From Streptomyces sp. NBC_01294 (GTDB lineage Bacteria; Actinomycetota; Actinomycetes; Streptomycetales; Streptomycetaceae), in NCBI RefSeq assembly GCF_035917235.1, contig NZ_CP108423.1, positions 806,001 to 870,000 on the forward strand: a stretch of DNA of 64,000 nucleotides, given 5' to 3'. The notes under the pieces are model-generated. The model searched no databases. It had not been told where the DNA came from and saw nothing but the letters and a program-made list of their open reading frames with translations. Made by a program: the position numbers and the translations under genes. This document shows positions 25,401 through 62,040 of this stretch, piece by piece. The number at the start of each line of letters is the position of its first letter. Within the stretch, counting starts at the first letter, position 1.

Positions 25401-28260
<2,860 letters not shown>

Positions 28261-29820
28261 TCAAAGAGCGGTGGCCCAGGCCTTGCGCACGATGAAGGAA
28301 GCCTGGCCGGCGAAGGCCCGAGTGCCGTCGGAGCCGTCGAGCCAGATGCCACCGTCGCGGTGGCGGAGGACCGATCCGGGATAGTTGTGCGCATGCAGGG
28401 TTACCGACCCGGCGACCGCTCCGGGGTGCGGACAGAAGGTGGCGTCTTCACGGAACAGTTCGCTGCCGTCGTTGGTGCTCAGCCGTAGCCGCAGGTCTCG
28501 ATGGCGCAGATAGCGGCCGTCGGCGGCGCGGAAGGTGACGCACCGTGTGTCGGCCAGCCCCTGGATGACCACGAAGGTGACCCGCTGCCGCGTCTGCGCG
28601 CTGCTGGACGCGGAGACTCGGCCGAGCGTCGCGAAGTCGTCGGCATACGTGAGGTACAGGGAGGGGTCGTCCACGGACTGCAGCGACTGTGCGCCCAGCG
28701 GAACAGTGCCTGGGACGGCGGACGGACTCACCGGGGACGGTCCGTCCGACGTGGTGGTGCGCGACGGGACCGGCGTGGGATTGCCGACGGTGGGAGCGGC
28801 GATGACGCCGGGCTCCCTATGCGCCGGTTCGGGCCAGGTCGCGTAGGTGGCGGCCCCGGCGATGAGCACCGCGCCGGTGGCGAGGCTCACCAGCGGTTGA
28901 GCGGTCACCGCGTGGAGTTTGCCGATCAGCGCGCTGTGCAGACTGCCTCCCGCCGTCGCCGTGCCGACGGCGACGTGTGCCGTGGCCAGCCCGGCGGCGC
29001 TCGCGGCCGTACCCGACAGCAGGCCCTTGGCGGCCAGCGCCGCGATGAGTCCGGCCGGGACGGTCAGCGTCGCGAGGCTGAGGAGCAGTAGTTCGGCCGG
29101 AACCCGTTCTGTCGTCGTCGCCGTGCAGACCGGGCAGTCGCGTGTGTGCCGCGCGATCCGCTTGCGCCACACCGATGCAGGGAGACCGTCCCAGCCGACG
29201 ACGGTCTCGTCCAACTGCGGACAGCGCGGGTCGGCCTCCAGCGCGGCGACGATCGTCCGGCTCAGTTCCAGCTGCTCGCGCATGCGTTGCAGGCGTACTC
29301 CGACGTGGGGAACAGTGAGCCCCGTCGCGGCGGCGATGTCGTCACGACTCAGCGAGCCGGCGCGTTCCTGCCACCACAGCGACAGCAGCACCCGATGGTC
29401 CGGGTCGAGCCACCGGCCGGCTTCGGCAACCTGACGGCGCTCGTCCGACACATGCAGACGCAGGATCGTCACGTCCTCGGGTTCGGCGCCGGCGTCCGGT
29501 ATCTGGTGTGCCTCGTCGATGACCGTGGTCCGGCCGGCGAAGGTGCGTTGCCGCTGCCAGTGGGTGTTGATCTGGCGGAGCGTGATCGACACCAGCCAGG
29601 ACCGGAAGCTCTCCGGGGCACGCAGGGCAGGCAGGTCGCGCACCACGCGCAGCAGGGTTTCCTGGACGACGTCGTCGACGTCGGCATGTCCGCTCAGCGC
29701 TCGCCTGACGATGTTGTAGAGCAACGGCAGGTACGCGGCGATCAGCTCCTCGCGCGCCCGATCGTCACCGGCCTGCGCCGCGACGACCAGCCCCGCGTGG
29801 TCCGCATCCATGAGCCCCAT
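28261..29820 (-). CDS. ECF sigma factor fused to zinc motif, membrane helices and AbfB arabinose-binding domain
   Basis: The 519 aa product appears to be a one-protein sugar-sensing sigma factor. Sigma2 spans about 10-95 (DVDDVVQETLLRV) and sigma4 about 135-190 (SRDDIAAATGLTVPHVGVRL). Then HTRDCPVC (225-232), the HxxxCxxC of zinc anti-sigma domains, hydrophobic segments at about 243-265 and 308-327 (a weaker one at 270-290), a Pro/Ser/Thr linker (330-375), and an AbfB/CBM42 beta-trefoil (about 375-515) with YLRHRDLRL and VLRHRDGG, the His/Asp-type arabinose-binding motif. The sigma part would be cytoplasmic and AbfB outside. ECF factors with such C-terminal extensions are known (ECF53-like groups). 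ATG at 29820 follows GGGAGGTGGGA. Targets are probably the flanking xylanase and xyloglucanase genes. Confidence 0.85.
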   Translation of the reverse strand: MGLMDADHAGLVVAAQAGDDRAREELIAAYLPLLYNIVRRALSGHADVDDVVQETLLRVVRDLPALRAPESFRSWLVSITLRQINTHWQRQRTFAGRTTVIDEAHQIPDAGAEPEDVTILRLHVSDERRQVAEAGRWLDPDHRVLLSLWWQERAGSLSRDDIAAATGLTVPHVGVRLQRMREQLELSRTIVAALEADPRCPQLDETVVGWDGLPASVWRKRIARHTRDCPVCTATTTERVPAELLLLSLATLTVPAGLIAALAAKGLLSGTAASAAGLATAHVAVGTATAGGSLHSALIGKLHAVTAQPLVSLATGAVLIAGAATYATWPEPAHREPGVIAAPTVGNPTPVPSRTTTSDGPSPVSPSAVPGTVPLGAQSLQSVDDPSLYLTYADDFATLGRVSASSSAQTRQRVTFVVIQGLADTRCVTFRAADGRYLRHRDLRLRLSTNDGSELFREDATFCPHPGAVAGSVTLHAHNYPGSVLRHRDGGIWLDGSDGTRAFAGQASFIVRKAWATAL

Positions 29821-29950
29821 TCCCACCTCCCTCAGGGGAGCGATCCGCCGAGCACGGCGCCACACCCTAGTGTCGGCAAGGGTATGCGGCCAAAGCCTGT
29901 GCCTTGGGTCACTGGAACGGCCCGCGCCGAATTGGACGGCCCGGTACCGC

Positions 29951-30108: not shown

Positions 30109-32733
30109 ATGAAGAACCCCACGAACGGCGGGCGCCGCGGGCGTCACCGCCGTCGCTGGACCGCGACCGGTCTGCTGCTCGGCGTGCCCGCCGTCCTCGT
30201 GCCGTACCTCCTGTTCGTGCAGGAGGACTCGCAGGCCGCGACGGTCGACGGCAATGCCTACTACAGGCTGATTTCCGTACGCAGCGGGAAGGTGATTGAC
30301 GTCAACGCCTTCTCCACCGCCGACGGCACCCGCATCCAGCAGTGGACCGACCAGAACACCGCCAACCAGCAGTGGAGGCTGAGACCCACCGGGGACGGCT
30401 ACTACGAGCTGGTGAACCGCAACAGCGGCAAAGTGCTGGGCATAGCGGGCAATTCGACTGCCCAGACGGCCGCCGCCGAGCAGCAGACCGACGGCTCCTC
30501 CACCTCCCAGGAGTGGCGGATCGACGATGTGAGTGGTTCCGACGCCGTCACCTTCACCTCCCGCGGGAGCGGCCAGGTCCTGGACGTCTCCGGAGGCTCC
30601 ACGGCCGACGGCGCGGGAGTCATCCAGTATCCCGGCAAGGGCAGCACCAACCAGCAGTGGAAGCTGGTGAAAACGGCCGGGACCCAGGCGGTCGGGGCCG
30701 GACCGTACACGTGGAACAACGCGCAGGTCGTGGGCGGCGGTTACGTCACCGGGCTGGTGTTCAACCCGCGGGAGAAGGGTCTGCTGTACGCGCGCACCGA
30801 CATGGGCGGCGCCTACCGCTGGGACGTCGCGGCCGAGCAGTGGATCCCGCTGACCGACTGGCTCGGCGAGAAGGACTGGAACCTTCTGGGCATCGATTCG
30901 CTGGCCACCGACCCCGTCGACCCCGCGCGGCTCTACCTCGCGACGGGCACCTACACCAACAACTGGGCTGGCAACGGCGCGATCCTGCGCTCCACGGACC
31001 GGGGCCGCACCTTCCAGCGCACCGACCTGCCCTTCAAGCTGGGCGCCAACGAGGACGGCCGCGGGGCGGGCGAACGACTGGCGATCAACCCCGCAGAGAA
31101 CGGCACCCTGCTGCTGGGCACCCGCAAGAACGGCCTGTGGCGCAGCAGCGACCACGGCGTGACATGGAGCCAGGTCTCCTCGTTCCCCGTCAAGGACGGG
31201 GCGAGCAGCGGCGCGGGCATTTCCTTCGTGACGTACGGCCCGGCCGGAAGCAAGACGATCTATGTCGGCGTCGCCGACAAGTCCACCTCCCTGTACCGCT
31301 CCACCGACGGCGGCAGCACCTGGCAGGCCGTCTCCGGGCAGCCCACCGGCCAGATGCCGCAGCACGGCGTGCTCTCCGGTGACGGCTCGCTGTACCTGAC
31401 GTACGCCAACACCGTCGGACCCAACGGCGCGACGGCGGGTTCGGTGTGGAAGTACACGCCGGCGGGCGGGGCGTGGAAGAACGTCTCCCCGTCCAGCGGC
31501 AGCTACGGGTTCTCCGGTCTGGCCGTCGACCCGCAGAAGCCGTCCACGGTGATGGTCACCACCCTCGACCGCTGGTGGCCCGAGGACGAGCTCTACCGGA
31601 GCACCGACGGCGGCACGACCTGGAAGGCGCAGGCCGCGAAGTCGGCGCGGAGCGCCTCCGCCGCTCCTTATGTCGGTACCGGCATCGGGCACTGGATGAC
31701 TGCCCTAGCCATCGATCCCTTCGACTCCGGGCACGTGCTGTACGGCACCGGCAGCGGCATCTGGCGCAGCAAGGACGCCATCGCCACCGACAGCGGCGGC
31801 ACCAGCCACTGGACCGCGGGGGCCCGCGGGCTGGAGGAGACCGCGCTGATGGACGTGATCGCCCCGCCCGGCGGCGCCACCGTCATCAGCGCCATGGGCG
31901 ACCTGGGCGGTTTCCGCCACGACTCCCTTACCAGGGTGCCCGCAGGGCGGCTGGACAATCCGATGATGATCACCAGCACCGACATCGACTTCGCCCAGTC
32001 CAACCCCTCGGTGATGGTCCGCGTCGGCCGTGGCGGCGCGCAGGACGGCGCCTACTCCACCGACGGTGGCAGCAGCTGGAACGGCTTCAAGGCAGAGCCG
32101 GTGGGCAGCGCCGACAGCGGCCATGTCGCGCTCGCGGCGGACGGCTCCGCCATCGTCTGGACCCAGGCCGGCCAGGCCCCGTATCGCTCGACCGACAAGG
32201 GGGCGAGCTGGTCGAAGGCCAGCGGCCTGGGCACCGGCGCCGTGGTCGTCGCCGACCGCTCCTCGGCCAGTACCTTCTACTCACTGACCGGCGGCACGCT
32301 CCACGCCAGCACCGACGGCGGCGCGACCTTCACCGCCCGCGCCGCCAACCTGCCCGCCGGCCGGCTCACGGCCGCCCCCGGCATCGCCGGGGACCTGTGG
32401 ATCGCCGACGGTGCCAGGGGGCTGCTGCACTCCACCGACGGCGGCCGCAGCTTCACCACGCTCCAAACGGTGCAGTCCGCCTCCGCCCTCGGCTTCGGTA
32501 AGGCCGCGCCGGGCGGCGCCTACCAGGCCCTGTACCTGATCGGTACCGTCAAGGACGTCACCGGAGTCTTCCGCTCCACCGACAAGGGCGCCACCTGGCT
32601 CCGCGTCAACGACGACGCCCACCAGTGGGGCAGCATCGGCGGCGTCGGCGTCATCGCCGGCGACCCCGACACCTACGGCCGCGTCTATGTCGGCACCAAC
32701 GGACGCGGCCTCCAGTACGGCGACCCGTCCTGA
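30109..32733 (+). CDS. CBM13-GH74 xyloglucanase
   Basis: GH74 enzymes cut xyloglucan, an inverting reaction carried out between two seven-bladed propellers. The 874 aa product has a basic N-terminus and signal-like hydrophobic segment (about 18-37), a ricin-type CBM13 (about 48-190, QQW motifs) and GH74 (about 200-874). The paired catalytic Asp lie in ARTDMGGAYRW (D231) and AMGDLGGFRH (D598); many STDGG/SxDxG blade repeats follow. The N-terminal binding domain is unusual, since Streptomyces GH74 proteins more often carry a C-terminal CBM2. ATG at 30109 follows AAGGAG. It diverges from the ECF-AbfB gene. Confidence 0.9.
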   Translation: MKNPTNGGRRGRHRRRWTATGLLLGVPAVLVPYLLFVQEDSQAATVDGNAYYRLISVRSGKVIDVNAFSTADGTRIQQWTDQNTANQQWRLRPTGDGYYELVNRNSGKVLGIAGNSTAQTAAAEQQTDGSSTSQEWRIDDVSGSDAVTFTSRGSGQVLDVSGGSTADGAGVIQYPGKGSTNQQWKLVKTAGTQAVGAGPYTWNNAQVVGGGYVTGLVFNPREKGLLYARTDMGGAYRWDVAAEQWIPLTDWLGEKDWNLLGIDSLATDPVDPARLYLATGTYTNNWAGNGAILRSTDRGRTFQRTDLPFKLGANEDGRGAGERLAINPAENGTLLLGTRKNGLWRSSDHGVTWSQVSSFPVKDGASSGAGISFVTYGPAGSKTIYVGVADKSTSLYRSTDGGSTWQAVSGQPTGQMPQHGVLSGDGSLYLTYANTVGPNGATAGSVWKYTPAGGAWKNVSPSSGSYGFSGLAVDPQKPSTVMVTTLDRWWPEDELYRSTDGGTTWKAQAAKSARSASAAPYVGTGIGHWMTALAIDPFDSGHVLYGTGSGIWRSKDAIATDSGGTSHWTAGARGLEETALMDVIAPPGGATVISAMGDLGGFRHDSLTRVPAGRLDNPMMITSTDIDFAQSNPSVMVRVGRGGAQDGAYSTDGGSSWNGFKAEPVGSADSGHVALAADGSAIVWTQAGQAPYRSTDKGASWSKASGLGTGAVVVADRSSASTFYSLTGGTLHASTDGGATFTARAANLPAGRLTAAPGIAGDLWIADGARGLLHSTDGGRSFTTLQTVQSASALGFGKAAPGGAYQALYLIGTVKDVTGVFRSTDKGATWLRVNDDAHQWGSIGGVGVIAGDPDTYGRVYVGTNGRGLQYGDPS

Positions 32734-33036: not shown

Positions 33037-34521
33037 TTAGCGCTGCAGTGTCAGCAGAGCCGGTCGGTAGGGCCATTGTCCGTATTCGCCGCCGGAGTTG
33101 GGGTCGCGTCCCTGGTAGAGGAACTGCAGGTTGCAGGGATCGACGGTGAAGGTCTGATCGGCGCTGGTGCGGATCAGTTCGCCATGGCTGATGTCGTTGG
33201 TCCAGGTGGCGCCACTGTTGGCCTTGCCGGCGAAGGAGTTGCTCTCGGTCGCGGCCTGGGGTGTCCATGAGCCGTTCAGGCTGGTGGCCGTGAACGAGCG
33301 GAAGTAGCGGCCCTGCGAGCCCCTCGCCTCGACGAGCATGAGGTAGCGGTCCTGGCCTTGGAGCTTGTAGACCTGCGGGGCTTCGAACAGGTTGTCCGCC
33401 GTATCGCTCATGATCGTCGTGTAGTTCGAGCCGAAACTGCTCGGGAAGTTCCCGATCGGCATACTGGCCCGGTAGATCTTGCCGTTGTCACCGGCGAAGA
33501 ACAGGTACATGTTCGTGCCGTCAGCGATGAGCGTCTGGTCGATGGGGCCCGTGGTGGAGCCGGTGATGCTTCCGGTGAAGAGCACCTGCTGTGAGGACCA
33601 GCCATTGGGGTTGGACGGGTCGCTCGACGTCCGGTAGGAGAAGGCGCTCCCGCCTCCCCACTGGTAGGCGAGCACCCAGATGTTCTTCGGCGCGAAGTAG
33701 AAGAGCGTGGGCGCGACAACGGAGTTCGACATCGTGTTCTGGCCGGCCGAGGCCATCTCCGGCCAGTTGGTGAACAGGCCGAAGTTCATCGAACCCCAGC
33801 CCGCTCCCGTTCCCGCGGCGCCGTGCGTCGTCGCATAGACGAGATGCTTGCCGTTGTAGGGGGCGACGGTGAAGTCCTTGAGCGAGGCCCACCCGGACTT
33901 GGGCTGCGCCAGCGCGCCCGTCGAGGTCCAGCGGTAGCTCGACGGAAGTGCGCACGCGCCGGGGTTGCCGCCGCCGACCTTGACGAGCTGCCACTGCTGG
34001 TTGGTGCCGCCCCAGTCGTCGTACTGGACGATGTTCGCGTTGTCGGCGGTGGAGCCGCCTTGCACTTCGAGGGCCTTGTTGCTGTGGCGCGCGATGAGCC
34101 TCACGTAGCCGTCCGAGCTGTCGGCCAGCCGCCACTGCTGGTTGGTGGCGTTCACGTCGGCCCACTGGACGATCGAGACCCCGTTCGCCGTGGCCCCGTT
34201 CTGAACGTCCAGCACCTTGCCGGAGTGGCGGGACTTGATGCGGTAGTAACCGCCGCCGGAGTCGACGAACTGCCACTGCTGCTGGTTCTGATCGTTCCTG
34301 GTCCACTGGGTGATGCGGGCGCCGTCGTTGGTCGCCAGGTTGTAGACGTCCAGGGCCTTGCCGCTGGTGCGGTTGACCAGCACGTACGAGGCGTTGGTGT
34401 CGATGATCGGCGCCGCGCCCGCGGGCTGGACACTAAGGAAAGTGGCCAGGAGCAGCAAGGGCGCGAGGACGGCGAGCAGGCGTCGCCTCAGGTGGACCGG
34501 GGATGGTTGGCGAAACCACAT
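33037..34521 (-). CDS. CBM13-GH62 arabinofuranosidase
   Basis: Releases L-arabinofuranose from arabinoxylan. The 494 aa product has a signal peptide (about 1-37, [15 protein letters not shown]), a ricin-type CBM13 with three repeats (about 42-185; QQW in each), then GH62 (about 195-494; [27 protein letters not shown]). The GH62 part closely resembles the other two GH62 domains in the window, but the binding domain is of a different subtype (SGKALDV/SGKVLDV). ATG at 34521 follows AAAGGAG at 9 bases. The frame stays open upstream into a truncated GH30 gene, so a longer product cannot be excluded. Confidence 0.9.
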
Positions 34522-34851
34522 CAGAAGAGCTCCTTTGGGGGGTGGGGGTGAGGTGACTCCGGCGAACCGCGGAGCGGCCGCGTTGGGGGGGGGCGGGGAC
34601 GGGATAGGTGTGAAGGCGGCCGCACATGCCGAAGCGTTGGTGCTCCAGGCGTGACACACCTCGCGCTGCTTGGCCGGGCTGAGGCCGCGTGCGCCGTGCA
34701 GCAGGTCGGCCCGCTGGAAGGCCATCGAGAAGCCGAATCCGTCTATGGGCTGGAGCTCGGCGCGGAAGTCGATGCCGGGTCGCGCGGGGGCGGCCACAGC
34801 CTGCGTTGTTAGCGCTAACAGTATTGCTGTCAATGCGGTCAGGCGATTCAT
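34522..34851 (-). pseudogene. Truncated GH30 family gene, in frame with the GH62 gene
   Basis: From ATG 34851 there is a full signal peptide ([20 protein letters not shown]) and the first conserved segment of a GH30 enzyme: [16 protein letters not shown] and [14 protein letters not shown]. After about residue 66 similarity stops and a Pro-rich stretch runs on without stop into the GH62 gene. About 400 residues of GH30 are missing. Codons 12-16 contain the LacI-type operator and a TTA codon, rare in Streptomyces. It follows the MalG-type permease gene by 36 bases. Confidence 0.65.
34807..34820. promoter_or_regulatory. LacI-type operator TGTTAGCGCTAACA (intragenic)
   Basis: Perfect 14-bp palindrome, identical to the site at 53692. 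It lies within the signal-peptide codons of the truncated GH30 gene, 32-45 bases after its start, and 286 bases upstream of the GH62 start. Confidence 0.75.
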
Positions 34852-34887
34852 GACGTCTCCCCGGGGGTGGAGGTCACGCGGGACGGG

Positions 34888-35718
34888 TCAGCCCTTGGTG
34901 GCGCCCGCGGTGAGGCCGCCGACCAACTGCCGCTCGGCGACGGCGTAGAAGGCGAGGGCGGGGACCATGGCGAGCACGATGTAGGCGAGGACGAGCGCGT
35001 AGTCGGTCGAGTACTGGCCCTGGAACTGCTGGACTCCGACCGGGATCGTCTGCCATTTCGGGTCGTTGAACACCAGCAGCGGCAGGAAGAAGTTGTTCCA
35101 GCTCGCGACGATCGCGAGCACCGACACCGTGCCGAGCGCCGGACGCGCCATCGGCAGCAGGATCTTCCAGAAGAAGCGGAACTTGCCGCAGCCGTCCATG
35201 ATGGCCGCCTCCTCGACCTCCGCTGGGATGGTCCGAAAGAAGCCGCGCAGAATGATGATCGTCATGGGGAGCCCGAAGGCCGCCTGCGGGAGGATCACTC
35301 CGAGCGGGTTGTCGAGCAGGTCGAAGTTCCGCAGCAGCAGGAACAGCGGCAGGACGGCCACCGCGAACGGGAACATCAGCCCGATCGTGAACAGCGTGTA
35401 GAACAGCTCCCTGCCCCGGAAGGCGTAGCGGGCCAGTACGAACGCCGCCATCGCGGAGACCGCCACCGTGCAGCATGCCGTGCCGACCGCGATGCCCGCG
35501 CTGTTGGCGATCTGCCGCCAGAACATTCCGTCGCCGAGGATGCCGGTGTAGTTGCCGGTCTTCCAGTGCTTCGGCAGCCCGAACGGGTTGGTCGTCAGCT
35601 CGCCGGTGCTCTTGAACCCGGAGATCACCGCGTAGACCAGCGGCACGACGACGAACGCGCCGATCAGCCAGACCACGGCGTGCAGCGACAGGCCGCGTGC
35701 CGTCCTGCGGGCGTTCAT
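34888..35718 (-). CDS. Carbohydrate ABC transporter permease, MalG type
   Basis: Inner-membrane subunit of a CUT1 sugar importer. The 276 aa product has six predicted helices and the EAA loop (EEAAIMDGCGKFRFFWKILLP, about 185-205) that contacts the ATPase. ATG 35718 overlaps the stop of the upstream MalF-type gene by 4 bases. That partner is truncated and there is no binding protein or ATPase nearby, so the importer is almost surely non-functional unless subunits come from elsewhere. Confidence 0.88.
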   Translation of the reverse strand: MNARRTARGLSLHAVVWLIGAFVVVPLVYAVISGFKSTGELTTNPFGLPKHWKTGNYTGILGDGMFWRQIANSAGIAVGTACCTVAVSAMAAFVLARYAFRGRELFYTLFTIGLMFPFAVAVLPLFLLLRNFDLLDNPLGVILPQAAFGLPMTIIILRGFFRTIPAEVEEAAIMDGCGKFRFFWKILLPMARPALGTVSVLAIVASWNNFFLPLLVFNDPKWQTIPVGVQQFQGQYSTDYALVLAYIVLAMVPALAFYAVAERQLVGGLTAGATKG

Positions 35719-52111: not shown

Positions 52112-53788
<1,677 letters not shown>

Positions 53789-59432: not shown

Positions 59433-59611
59433 CCGTGCCGCCCAGCCCGTTTCCCCGCACTCCCTCGCTCAGTGAGCGGACCGATTCGGGACACCGCTGC
59501 CCGGCCGCCCTGAAGGACCCGCCGCGCGCCTGCTTCCCACCGTCGGCAACCTTTTCGCGTCCTGCGGCGACAAGGCAGTGCACCTCGACTCGGATCTTCG
59601 AACGGACGGAC

Positions 59612-60562
59612 ATGCAGACTGCACGGCAGGCCGCGCGGCAGCGCAGGCATAGACACAGGCTGATGCTGGGGACGGCAGTGATACTGACCACCGCGGGCCT
59701 CCTCTTCTACCTGGTGACGGCCATGCTCCCCGGCCCCAAGGCCGGGGCAGGCGCTGGGGCCGACGTGGCCGCCCCCGCCGCCACCCCTGCGGGAGCCGCG
59801 CCTTCGGCCCCGACGAGCCCAGCGCCCCCGGCGGCCAGCTCACATGCCGCGGCACCCCCGAGCGCGACCGCCGCAGCGACCACTGCGGCGACGCCAACGC
59901 CTTCGGCGAAGGAAACCCCACCGGCGGCATCCACCCCGGCACCGTCGGCAGGACGCATCCGGCCGGGTACCACCTACAAGGGCGTCGCCACCGCCTACGC
60001 CGCCGCCGACGGCAACGGCGCCTGCCTGTTCGGCCCGAGCGACGACCTCATGATCGCGGCGATGAACACCACCGACTACGAGTCGTCCAGGGCCTGTGGC
60101 GCGTACGTGCGCGTCCGCGCCGCGAACGGCGCCTCGATCACGGTCCGGATCACCAACGAATGCCCGCTCCCCTGCGCGCCCGGACAACTGGACCTCAGCG
60201 AACAGGCCTTCGCGAAACTGGCCGAGCTCAAGGTCGGCCGCATCCCGATCACCTGGAGCCTGGTGAGCCCCCGCACGTCCGACACCCTCTCCCTCCGGTA
60301 CAAGACAGGGTCCAGCGCCCACTGGTGCGGCATCCAGGTGATCGACCACCGGAATCCGGTCGCACGGCTGGAGGTACGCACCGGCAAGGGCTGGCGGCGA
60401 CTGCCCCGTACCGACTACAACTACTTCCTCTCCTCAGACGGCGGTGGGTGCGGCGGCGCGATAAGGATCACCGACATCTACGGAGAGCAGTTGACGGTCG
60501 ACGGGACAGCGCTGCTGCCGAACGTCGCACAACCGACCAGGGTCCAGTTCGCCGCGCACTGA
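59612..60562 (+). CDS. Bacterial expansin (EXLX type)
   Basis: Expansins loosen plant cell walls without hydrolysis by binding cellulose and xyloglucan. The 316 aa product has a basic N-terminus and one hydrophobic segment (about 18-40), an Ala/Pro/Ser/Thr linker (about 45-120), a double-psi barrel (about 120-225; ATAYAAADGNGACLFGP, ACGAYVRV, TNECPLPCAPGQLDLS with the conserved Asp) and a CBM63-like domain (about 228-316). ATG 59612. Its N-terminus may act as a membrane anchor or signal peptide. It lies just before the SigE-type gene and fits the island's role in attacking plant walls. Confidence 0.9.
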   Translation: MQTARQAARQRRHRHRLMLGTAVILTTAGLLFYLVTAMLPGPKAGAGAGADVAAPAATPAGAAPSAPTSPAPPAASSHAAAPPSATAAATTAATPTPSAKETPPAASTPAPSAGRIRPGTTYKGVATAYAAADGNGACLFGPSDDLMIAAMNTTDYESSRACGAYVRVRAANGASITVRITNECPLPCAPGQLDLSEQAFAKLAELKVGRIPITWSLVSPRTSDTLSLRYKTGSSAHWCGIQVIDHRNPVARLEVRTGKGWRRLPRTDYNYFLSSDGGGCGGAIRITDIYGEQLTVDGTALLPNVAQPTRVQFAAH

Positions 60563-60648
60563 AACCTCACCGCGGCGGGGTGGCGGAGCCGGGGCACGCC
60601 GCATCGGCGCGCCCCGGCCAACCGGGCACTGGTACGCTGCCGCCCGGA

Positions 60649-60662
60649 TGTTAGCGCACACA
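60649..60662. promoter_or_regulatory. Possible LacI-type operator TGTTAGCGCACACA
   Basis: Differs from the araB operator at one position. It lies 27 bases before the SigE-type start and 86 bases after the expansin stop. The weakest of the eight sites by symmetry. Confidence 0.5.
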
Positions 60663-60688
60663 TTTCGCGGAGGGGACGACCAACGGAC

Positions 60689-61222
60689 ATGGTCCTCGAT
60701 GACGCGTCCGCGGAGTTCCACGACTTCTTCGAACGCCACTATGCCGAACTCGCCCGGTTCGCCCATCTCCTGACGGGCGAGGCGGACGGCGCCGACGATC
60801 TGGCCGCGGACGCCCTGATCGCACTGTGGCAGCGCTGGGACCGGCTGCGCCGGGCCGAGTACCCACTCGCCTACGCCCGTGGCGTGGTCGCCAACCTGGC
60901 ACGGTCACGGATCCGCAGCACGGTGCGCGAGCGCCGCCGGATCGCCCTGTTCTGGTCCCGCGGTGCGGAGCCGTTGCACGGTCCGGACGTGGCCGCCGTG
61001 GTGGACGTGCGGACCGCTCTCGCCCGATTGCCGTTCCGGAAGCGGTCGTGCGTGGTCCTGCGGCATGCCTTCGACCTGTCGGAGAGGGACACCGCTCTGG
61101 CGCTCGGAATATCGGTCGGTACGGTGAAGAGCCAGACCTCGAAGGGGATGGCCGAGCTGGAACGGATGCTGGGCAGCACAGGAGCAGCCGGGGAACTGTT
61201 GGCGGGGAGGAGGAGCCGTTGA
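60689..61222 (+). CDS. SigE-family ECF sigma factor
   Basis: The 177 aa product belongs to the actinobacterial SigE-family ECF group. Region 2 has GADDLAADALIALWQRWDRL and region 4 ERDTALALGISVGTVKSQTSKG. ATG 60689. Its stop overlaps the TTG start of the next gene (TTGA), as in sigma/anti-sigma pairs of this group. A possible LacI-type operator in its leader would tie it to arabinose. Targets unknown; the expansin next to it is a candidate. Confidence 0.9.
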   Translation: MVLDDASAEFHDFFERHYAELARFAHLLTGEADGADDLAADALIALWQRWDRLRRAEYPLAYARGVVANLARSRIRSTVRERRRIALFWSRGAEPLHGPDVAAVVDVRTALARLPFRKRSCVVLRHAFDLSERDTALALGISVGTVKSQTSKGMAELERMLGSTGAAGELLAGRRSR

Positions 61223-62040
61223 ACGAGGAACTCACCGGGCGGCTGCGCGCGGCCGCCGAGGCCCACCAGCCCGATCGTGCCCGGATCCTGACACGCGTGG
61301 AACGCGGCATGTCCGGTGCCCCCGTCCGCCACCGCGAGTCCTCGGGCGCGAGGCCCTGGCCCAGGATCGCGCTCGCTTCCCTGGCTGCGGCCGGCACTCT
61401 GGCGGTCGGCGGCTTCGCCGTCGCCGCCATCGTCCAGTCGCCGCCGGCCCGGCCGGACGTCTCGGCCACCCCCGCCGCGCCGTCGGCGCCGTCCGGGACG
61501 CCCCGGTCGACACCATCGGCGCCAGCGACACCGTCGGCGCCAGCCACCGGCCGCCCGACCACGCCGGACCGTTCGTCCCCGGCGGGCCCCAGCCCTTCTG
61601 CGTCAGGCGCCGCAGGCGGCTCGGCCCGGCCCGGCGGCGCGCACGTCCAGGACGGGCCTCTGTCGTCGGCCGGCTCCTTGGGCACGAACAGCAACAGCTT
61701 CTGGGCGCAGAGCAACATCACCCTCAAGTCCACCCAGCCGCTTACCGCGCTCACCGTGGAACTGCGCATCGCGCAGACCGGCGCAGTGCAGAGCACCGGC
61801 AGCTGGCGGACGCTGCCCCCCGAGGATTTCACCGTCACCGTGCAGAACGAGGGCGGAGCAGTGGTCTACCGCTGGATCCTCAAGCCGGGCCGCACGGTAC
61901 CGGCCGGACAGCATGTCTTCGCCGGCCAGTACAACCACGCCGCCGGCGCACGCGAGGTCGAGCACGACGGCTACCTCGTCGACGCCAACGGTCCCCGCGG
62001 CGCCCTCTCGGTCTGGGGCGGCTTCACCCCGCCAGGATGA
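61219..62040 (+). CDS. Membrane-anchored extracytoplasmic protein, possible anti-sigma/sensor
   Basis: The 273 aa product has a short cytoplasmic part (about 1-45, ELTGRLRAAAEAHQPDRARI), one membrane helix (about 49-70), a Pro/Ser/Thr linker (75-140) and an external domain (about 145-270; WAQSNITLKSTQPLTALTVE, FTVTVQNEGGAVVYRWILKP, FAGQYNHAAGARE). The cytoplasmic part has the style of SigE-family partner proteins. The external domain reminds me of a beta-sandwich carbohydrate-binding fold but I cannot name it. TTG start 61219 overlaps the sigma gene stop. Confidence 0.7.
   Translation: MNEELTGRLRAAAEAHQPDRARILTRVERGMSGAPVRHRESSGARPWPRIALASLAAAGTLAVGGFAVAAIVQSPPARPDVSATPAAPSAPSGTPRSTPSAPATPSAPATGRPTTPDRSSPAGPSPSASGAAGGSARPGGAHVQDGPLSSAGSLGTNSNSFWAQSNITLKSTQPLTALTVELRIAQTGAVQSTGSWRTLPPEDFTVTVQNEGGAVVYRWILKPGRTVPAGQHVFAGQYNHAAGAREVEHDGYLVDANGPRGALSVWGGFTPPG

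What the first reader, a model, noticed from the sequence alone, without database searches (positions are those of the whole stretch)
28261..29820. Single-protein arabinose-sensing sigma factor: ECF sigma - zinc motif - membrane helices - AbfB domain
Directly visible: sigma2 and sigma4 motifs, HxxxCxxC, at least two hydrophobic segments, a Pro/Ser/Thr linker and a C-terminal AbfB trefoil with two RHRD motifs. Family knowledge: zinc anti-sigma domains hold ECF factors inactive, AbfB (CBM42) domains bind arabinofuranose side chains, and ECF groups with C-terminal extensions including carbohydrate-binding domains exist (ECF53-like). Inference: the protein detects arabinoxylan outside the cell and is cut to release the sigma part, with the xylanase (same strand, downstream) and the divergent xyloglucanase as targets. 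It resembles the SigI/RsgI logic of Clostridium but in one chain.
Basis: partly seen in the sequence, partly recalled or inferred. Interest (0 to 1): 0.85.

Follow-up and report, generated by a model that had tools for sequence, protein, structure and literature searches.

The report
One-protein plant-fibre-sensing sigma factor
A soil bacterium carries a single membrane protein that joins a gene switch to a domain expected to bind arabinose-decorated plant fibre, and it nearly always travels next to an enzyme that digests that fibre, so it probably turns that enzyme on when the fibre is present.

Summary
The protein is real but lies on the minus strand (29820 to 28261, 519 aa): ECF sigma, zinc anti-sigma motif (C200, H225, C229, C232), probably one membrane helix, Pro/Ser/Thr linker, AbfB (CBM42) domain. 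This architecture class is known (actinobacterial ECF52/ECF53-type factors). The new evidence is genomic. In 40 of 41 loci (40 orthologues plus window) a GH10-containing xylanase, usually GH10-CBM13-GH62, lies 210-613 bp downstream on the same strand; GH74 xyloglucanase is near in 29 of 41; other neighbours differ. The sigma-xylanase pair is also on three plasmids. In 61 same-genus genomes the enzyme with both GH10 and GH62 parts at 77% identity or more occurs in the same 8 genomes as the sigma, adjacent in 8 of 8. Three more diverged xylanases without the sigma lack the upstream DNA blocks of sigma-linked ones. Sigma relatives (42-56%, one 38%) carry other outer domains; some polysaccharide-type ones sit beside matching enzymes, but CAP and unknown types do not, and the family-wide test is not significant. 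The predicted shared promoter of the two hydrolases was not found. Topology, ligand, cleavage and regulation are inferred. ECF52 membership was not met; ECF53 was not testable. Verdict: new variant of a known kind with a well-supported candidate target.

The parts
28261..29820 (-). sigma-ZAS-TM-AbfB gene, 519 aa (P0001)
   Evidence: translation; Pfam/NCBIfam; AlphaFold model
29545..29745 (-). sigma region 2 (residues 26-92)
29269..29361 (-). sigma region 4 helix-turn-helix (about residues 154-184)
   Evidence: weak Pfam region 4; TIGR02937 spans it
29125..29223 (-). zinc anti-sigma motif C200 ... H225xxxC229xxC232
   Evidence: invariant in 52 of 52 and 41 of 41
29029..29100 (-). hydrophobic stretch 241-264, interpreted as a cytosolic helix of the anti-sigma domain, not a membrane span
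   Evidence: short broken helices in the model; in CAP-type relatives it is followed by long or basic loops
28828..28893 (-). probable single transmembrane helix (310-331)
   Evidence: hydropathy and charge comparison in relatives; charge rule inconclusive inside the AbfB clade; not a confident helix in the model
28687..28827 (-). Pro/Ser/Thr-rich linker (332-378)
   Evidence: sequence
28288..28686 (-). AbfB / CBM42 beta-trefoil (379-511)
   Evidence: Foldseek to CBM42 structures; Cys427/Cys463 and H440/D459 conserved
28046..28114 (-). conserved blocks upstream of the xylanase: ATAACGCTTTTTGCCTGCGAGATGCATCAC (28085-28114) and CTTTTCCGTTACGAG (28046-28060)
   Evidence: alignment; positions; co-occurrence with the sigma
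27770..27925 (-). 51-aa leader ORF whose stop overlaps the xylanase start (ATGA)
   Evidence: same overlap in 33 of 41 loci
25401..27773 (-). GH10 - ricin-type CBM13 - GH62 xylanase/arabinofuranosidase, 790 aa, presumed target
   Evidence: Pfam; linkage
30109..32733 (+). CBM13 - GH74 xyloglucanase, divergent here
   Evidence: PDB xyloglucanases, best E 5e-191; linkage
33037..34851 (-). CBM13 - GH62 arabinofuranosidase nearby (my gene caller starts it at 34521)
   Evidence: Pfam

Best explanation
A self-contained sensor-regulator. The N-terminal ECF sigma factor is held inactive by a zinc anti-sigma domain in the same chain. A single membrane helix and a Pro/Ser/Thr linker place the C-terminal CBM42 (AbfB) domain outside the cell, where it binds arabinofuranose side chains of arabinoxylan. 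Binding leads to release of the sigma part, probably by regulated intramembrane proteolysis. The freed sigma drives the neighbouring xylanase gene (GH10-CBM13-GH62) and, where it follows in the same direction, the GH74 xyloglucanase. Shown here: domain anatomy, conserved zinc-type ligands and pocket residues, linkage to the xylanase, and co-occurrence of the sigma with specific DNA blocks upstream of the xylanase. Inferred: topology, ligand, cleavage, and that the blocks hold the sigma's promoter.
For: Domains. Zinc-type ligands invariant in 52 of 52 and 41 of 41. Foldseek: AbfB part against CBM42 of RsgI5 9fnk, TMt 0.89, rmsd 1.4, and A. kawachii AbfB 1wd3; sigma part against entries such as SigW-RsiW 5wuq. 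H440, D459, Cys427 and Cys463 in 40 of 41; the missing row is L070, whose gene is split over two frames. The two cysteines align with positions 384 and 422 of the AkAbfB chain. Xylanase downstream in 40 of 41 loci, GH74 near in 29 of 41; every other neighbour cluster is shared by at most 5 loci. Sigma-xylanase pair on three plasmids. Reverse test: of 61 genomes, 8 have the sigma, and the enzyme with both GH10 and GH62 parts at 77% or more is in the same 8, adjacent in 8 of 8. Upstream blocks A1, A2 and C far above shuffled controls in 6 of 8 further sigma-linked loci, weaker in L196, only C in L193; none above the shuffled maximum in 3 of 3 xylanases without sigma. Basic residues before exceed those after the membrane stretch in 44 of 57 relatives, 8 ties, 5 contrary (43 of 56 without the truncated L144).
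Against: Inside the AbfB clade the charge rule does not decide topology: net charge of the loop above that after the helix in 12 of 41, 12 ties, 17 opposite. No promoter motif was found shared between the sigma, xylanase and divergent GH74 upstream regions, so the divergent GH74 may have another regulator and the sigma may not regulate itself; by eye the sigma's upstream region looks like an ordinary vegetative promoter. The xylanases without sigma are also more diverged (66-72%), so absence of the blocks may be plain divergence. GH10 or GH62 parts alone at 77-86% occur without the sigma in G401, G414, G427, G437 and G439. Counts are not corrected for relatedness. L163 has an extra gene between sigma and xylanase. 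No binding, cleavage or expression data.
Confidence: 0.68

Rival explanations
1. The AbfB domain is cytosolic: both hydrophobic stretches span the membrane, so the C-terminus returns inside and senses an imported arabino-oligosaccharide or serves another role.
For: Two hydrophobic stretches in this protein; charge rule undecided within the AbfB clade.
Against: In relatives the membrane stretch is preceded by more basic residues than follow it in 44 of 57; loops of about 190 and 248 residues lie between the two stretches in L152 and L154; the model breaks the first stretch into short helices; the AbfB cysteine pair fits an oxidising compartment, though it may simply be a family trait.
Confidence: 0.12
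2. The sigma is not the activator of the xylanase; the two merely travel together on mobile DNA, and the conserved upstream blocks bind another regulator, such as a repressor.
For: Block A2 holds the palindrome GATGCATC (by eye); no promoter shared with sigma or GH74. Two of three sigma-less xylanases (L186, L188) lie beside a different sigma module, so the enzyme can be under other control. Block A2 exceeded its shuffled maximum upstream of the GH62 at 33037 and of the SigE-family gene, but those matches have 3 mismatches and their number in the window is at chance (7 against 7.86).
Against: Linkage in 40 of 41 loci in otherwise differing surroundings and 8 of 8 in the reverse test; the blocks are missing where the sigma is missing.
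Confidence: 0.2
3. AbfB is only an anchor: it tethers the protein or cell to plant fibre, and sigma release responds to something else, such as membrane stress or general proteolysis.
For: CBM domains often act as anchors (family knowledge); relatives with CAP or unknown outer domains show no matching hydrolases in the neighbours scanned.
Against: Two other AbfB-bearing sigma proteins lie near AbfB- or GH43-bearing genes (L148, L173/L175), and beta-helix ones lie beside pectinases in 2 of 3 scanned.
Confidence: 0.15

Closest known systems
ECF52 sigma factors (SCO4117 of S. coelicolor; PMC5826349, passages seen)
   Same: ECF sigma, zinc finger, membrane region, proline-rich extension and C-terminal carbohydrate-binding domain in one chain; activation by proteolysis proposed
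   Different: SCO4117 has a pfam13490 zinc finger and an smart00776 (NPCBM) module. The genome's own protein of that architecture (L184) shares 22% over 81 aa with this sigma part; no zf-HC2 Pfam hit here. SCO4117 acts on development and antibiotics.
ECF53 sigma factors (PMC8999054, PMC10766802, passages seen)
   Same: Fused zinc-finger anti-sigma part, one or two membrane helices, long extension; some members predicted to carry hydrolase or carbohydrate-binding domains
   Different: Membership not tested: no reference sequence or group model was available. The paper searches made here showed no AbfB member with a linked target.
SigI/RsgI of Clostridium (Acetivibrio) thermocellum, especially RsgI5 with CBM42 (9fnk; PMC6116742, passage seen)
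   Same: Outer CBM42 said to sense arabinoxylan, membrane anti-sigma, plant-fibre hydrolase genes as targets
   Different: Two separate proteins there; no RsgI N-terminal family hit here; here one chain with ECF sigma and zinc motif.
IutY of Pseudomonas putida (ECF243; PMC8999054, passage seen)
   Same: Sigma fused to a membrane anti-sigma part and released by proteolysis (experimentally characterised there)
   Different: Gram-negative siderophore signalling; no glycan domain.

Membership tests
ECF sigma factor | sigma regions 2 and 4 without region 3 | tested here: met
   Sigma70_r2 and TIGR02937; region 4 weak in Pfam; model helices
Zinc anti-sigma (ZAS) domain | HxxxCxxC plus an upstream ligand | tested here: met
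   C200, H225, C229, C232 invariant in 52 of 52 and 41 of 41; no Pfam zf-HC2 hit; zinc binding itself not tested
CBM42 / AbfB | Pfam AbfB over cut-off and beta-trefoil fold | tested here: met
   136.9 bits; Foldseek TMt 0.88-0.90 to isolated CBM42 chains
CBM42 / AbfB | binds arabinofuranose | not testable with these tools
   pocket residues H440 and D459 conserved; their role in AkAbfB is recalled
ECF52 | NPCBM domain and sigma part close to SCO4117 | tested here: not met
   AbfB instead; 22% over 81 aa to the genome's NPCBM-bearing sigma L184; SCO4117 itself was not available
ECF53 | match to the published group model or to reference WP_030276194.1 | not tested
   reference sequence not retrievable with these tools; three papers on the classification not held
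ECF53 | fused zinc anti-sigma part, 1-2 membrane helices, long C-terminal extension | tested here: met
   feature list from PMC8999054; these features are shared with ECF48 and ECF52 and do not single out ECF53
SigI/RsgI | separate anti-sigma protein with RsgI N-terminal domain | tested here: not met
   single chain, no such Pfam hit at E up to 1

The most novel reading that the evidence does not exclude
Actinobacteria hold one sigma family whose outer domain has been exchanged in evolution (AbfB, CAP, beta-helix/Pel9A-like, Glyco_hydro_cc, GH99-like, an unknown domain), and the polysaccharide-type members travel as mobile sense-and-degrade cassettes, so that the outer domain predicts the substrate of the neighbouring enzymes: arabinoxylan for AbfB, pectin for the beta-helix type, possibly beta-1,3-glucan for Glyco_hydro_cc.
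Probability: 0.45. Interest if true: 0.75.

Novelty: new variant of a known kind. Interest (0 to 1): 0.6.

Why it matters
[quoted passage not shown] This locus supplies a concrete, testable pair: a putative ligand class, a single target gene or operon that moves with the sensor, candidate upstream DNA blocks found only where the sensor is (among the loci examined), and natural controls (xylanases without the sensor). It could also serve as a compact one-gene glycan-responsive switch.

Tried and rejected
Shared promoter: an exact dyad search over the sigma, xylanase and divergent GH74 upstream sets found none. Weight-matrix scans of the xylanase blocks in the sigma/GH74 intergenic region were negative. 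Further GH62/GH10 genes: block B passes the shuffled 95% level, below the maximum, in two homologous GH62 upstream regions. My scan of the GH62 at 33037 covered only bases beyond 34851; repeated over 34450-35350, block A2 exceeded its shuffled maximum there (13.6 against 8.8) and also upstream of the SigE-family gene (13.1 against 11.9); these are 3-mismatch matches whose number in the window is at chance, so I do not count them. The L189 row used a wrong region and is not used; the right region is negative. A GH74 upstream motif GGCAACC..TGACCACAAGG occurs once in the genome. By eye AACxCTTT-like strings are shared, but I could not support this.

General 'outer domain is homologous to a neighbour' test: 10 of 67 loci against 7.3 expected when neighbours are swapped, so not significant over the family; CAP types dominate. 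Scanned neighbours of CAP and unknown (FPSSW) types include FUSC, a PH-domain protein, GDPD and adenosine deaminase. Beta-helix L171 has no pectinase among its annotated neighbours. L136 was never Pfam-scanned (one search failed); its two upstream neighbours fall in the same blast cluster as those of L135.

ECF52 membership not met. L182 and L183, tried as ECF52 candidates, end in CAP-type sequence.

Rows dropped: of 60 paralogue regions, 57 had the gene called (L114, L130, L138 not); L144 is a truncated gene (292 aa) beside GH95, counted but left out of the sensor comparison. Of 18 plasmid records, 17 were fetched (H6 not); L179 (partial match) was not used; gene calling failed for L170 and L173, and these two were scanned from the annotated coordinates. 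Genes were called by a home-made GC-frame script. L196 prints 'NO sigma' only because of a 70% threshold; it has the sigma at 69%. L190 and L192 are the same genomes as L041 and L055, from which the matrix was built, so they are left out of the 'further loci' count.

Literature: PMC searches. 'AbfB' with 'sigma factor' and 'Streptomyces' gave 0 papers. Papers were seen only as passages around search terms; the library lacks most subscription papers.

Full report
What is there. The ORF is on the minus strand, 29820 to 28261, 519 aa. Its order is sigma region 2 (26-92) and region 4 (Pfam weak; TIGR02937 22-185), a zinc motif, two hydrophobic stretches, a Pro/Ser/Thr linker and AbfB 379-511. The AlphaFold model is confident for the sigma and AbfB parts (mean pLDDT 70.6; residues 272-370 below 50). 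Foldseek places the AbfB part with CBM42 domains: RsgI5 9fnk (TMt 0.89, rmsd 1.4), CBM42A 3kmv and A. kawachii AbfB 1wd3; and the sigma part with entries of sigma/anti-sigma complexes such as SigW-RsiW 5wuq. The genome search found one AbfB domain in the whole genome, so here the domain seems to be used only in the sigma protein.

Anatomy of the switch. C200, H225, C229 and C232 are invariant in 52 of 52 aligned relatives and 41 of 41 loci. The protein has exactly five cysteines: these three and Cys427/Cys463 in AbfB. The last two align with chain positions 384 and 422 of AkAbfB, which I recall as a disulfide (C401-C439 in mature numbering). H440 and D459 align with chain positions 399 and 418 of AkAbfB, which with an offset of 17 are H416 and D435 (role in arabinose binding recalled). 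They are kept in 40 of 41; the exception is L070, whose gene is split over two frames. D489 is kept in 39 of 41 and H487 in 38 of 41.

Topology. Two spans would bring AbfB back into the cytosol. In relatives with other outer domains the region before the membrane stretch is basic: basic residues before exceed those after in 44 of 57, 8 ties, 5 contrary (43 of 56 without the truncated L144); mean 6.7 against 1.5. The first stretch (VPAEGLLVGLALVPV-like) directly follows the zinc motif, and in L152 and L154 it is separated from the second by about 190 and 248 residues. I therefore read it as a cytosolic helix of the anti-sigma domain and assign one membrane span (310-331), C-terminus out. Within the AbfB clade itself the charge rule is inconclusive (12 for, 12 ties, 17 against, of 41), and for the window protein the simple count is a tie.

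Linkage to the target. Forty named orthologue loci plus the window were compared. A GH10-containing xylanase homologous to 25401-27773 (Pfam GH10, CBM13, GH62 in the window protein) follows on the same strand in 40 of 41, after 210-613 bp; some copies differ, for example L046 and L054, whose second half is only about 44% alike. GH74 is near in 29 of 41: 24 in the same direction, 41 bp behind the xylanase in 14 of the 23 measured, and 5 divergent as in the window. The one locus without the xylanase, L040, has GH74 in its place behind the same upstream block. Every other neighbour cluster is shared by at most 5 loci, so the genes stay together in differing surroundings. The sigma-xylanase pair also lies on plasmids of Streptomyces sp. 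NBC_01001 (with an SMI1/KNR4 gene between), sp. NBC_01431 and S. globosus.

Reverse test. Of 61 same-genus genomes, 8 have the AbfB sigma. The enzyme with both its GH10 and GH62 parts at 77% or more is in the same 8 and adjacent in all 8; in G429 it appears to lack CBM13. Parts alone at 77-86% (GH10, or CBM13-GH62, or GH62) occur in G401, G414, G427, G437 and G439, which lack the sigma. Three others (G410, G443, G406) have the enzyme at 66-72% with no sigma in the 14-17 kb fetched. I did not correct these counts for relatedness, and two of the 8 genomes (G399, G429) are also among the 40 loci.

Upstream blocks. The sigma-xylanase intergenic region holds blocks conserved across the loci, among them ATAACGCTTT..TGCC.GCGAGATGCATCAC and TTTTCYGTTACGAG. 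Ten sigma-linked loci were scanned; two (L190, L192) belong to the set the matrix was built from. In the other eight, blocks A1, A2 and C score far above shuffled controls in six, are weaker in L196, and only C remains in L193. In the three sigma-less xylanase loci none exceeds the shuffled maximum. TTTTCYGTTACG matches exactly in 43 of 196 fetched loci, all 43 holding this sigma; 18 further loci with the sigma lack the exact string (several loci are duplicate or short stretches of one genome).

The wider family. In a tree of 54 sigma parts, this protein has 42-56% identity (one CAP row 38%) with sigma proteins ending in CAP, Glyco_hydro_cc, beta-helix/Pel9A-like, GH99-like, AbfB of other clades or an unknown domain, apart from the genome's own ECF52-like NPCBM protein (22% over 81 aa). 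Sensor types mostly follow clades; AbfB sits in two places, though one origin is not ruled out, and the beta-helix type is spread. Neighbours fit the outer domain in several polysaccharide types: L148 (AbfB) beside an AbfB gene and a GH43-AbfB gene; L135 (beta-helix) beside pectinesterase and pectate lyase genes; L141 (beta-helix) beside a pectinesterase-GH28 gene; L158 (Glyco_hydro_cc) beside a thaumatin-family gene and an M64 peptidase; L169 (GH99-like) beside a gene with a GH99 match below the cut-off; L173 of Cellulosimicrobium (AbfB) with a beta-helix gene next door and GH43 four genes away. Against this, L171 (beta-helix) has no such annotated neighbour, CAP and unknown types do not fit, and the family-wide test is not significant (10 of 67 against 7.3). 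Among the best 120 listed in each of two searches, relatives with Glyco_hydro_cc, beta-helix or CAP domains come from several actinobacterial genera.

Relation to known systems. It works like RsgI5-type CBM42 sensing, but in one chain, and it has the anatomy described for ECF52/53. ECF52 was tested by domain and sequence and not met; ECF53 is plausible but was not tested. Activation by proteolysis is the published expectation for these groups (PMC8999054, passage); I have no direct evidence for it here.

Noticed in passing
window 27770-27925, minus strand: A small leader ORF (51 aa, [12 protein letters not shown]...RGES) ends inside the xylanase start codon (ATGA overlap). The same 4-base overlap is found in 33 of 41 loci, lengths 12-74 aa; in three loci it is read into the xylanase frame, in one the stop falls 2 bases before, in four none was found. 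It may couple translation; it is annotated as a hypothetical protein in NZ_CP109497.
   Followed up: partly
window 59435-62040, plus strand: Expansin-like (DPBB) gene, SigE-family sigma (60689-61222) and a membrane protein with Pro/Ser/Thr linker and an outer domain without Pfam match (61219-62040). The same sigma and partner occur near the AbfB-sigma cassette in 5 of 40 loci and on plasmid L163, and upstream of the sigma-less xylanase in L186 and L188: perhaps a two-protein counterpart.
   Followed up: partly
window 52112-53485, minus strand: A further GH62 with CBM13 in the window; the genome's three matches to the xylanase at E <= 1e-60 all lie in this window.
   Followed up: no
L144 9078-9956: A sigma of this family cut short at 292 aa beside a GH95-CBM13 enzyme: a likely decayed sensor.
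   Followed up: no
window 29864-29894, minus strand: TTTGGC - 19 - TAGGGT upstream of the sigma gene, with spacing of 17-19 in relatives by eye, looks like a vegetative-type promoter rather than autoregulation.
   Followed up: no
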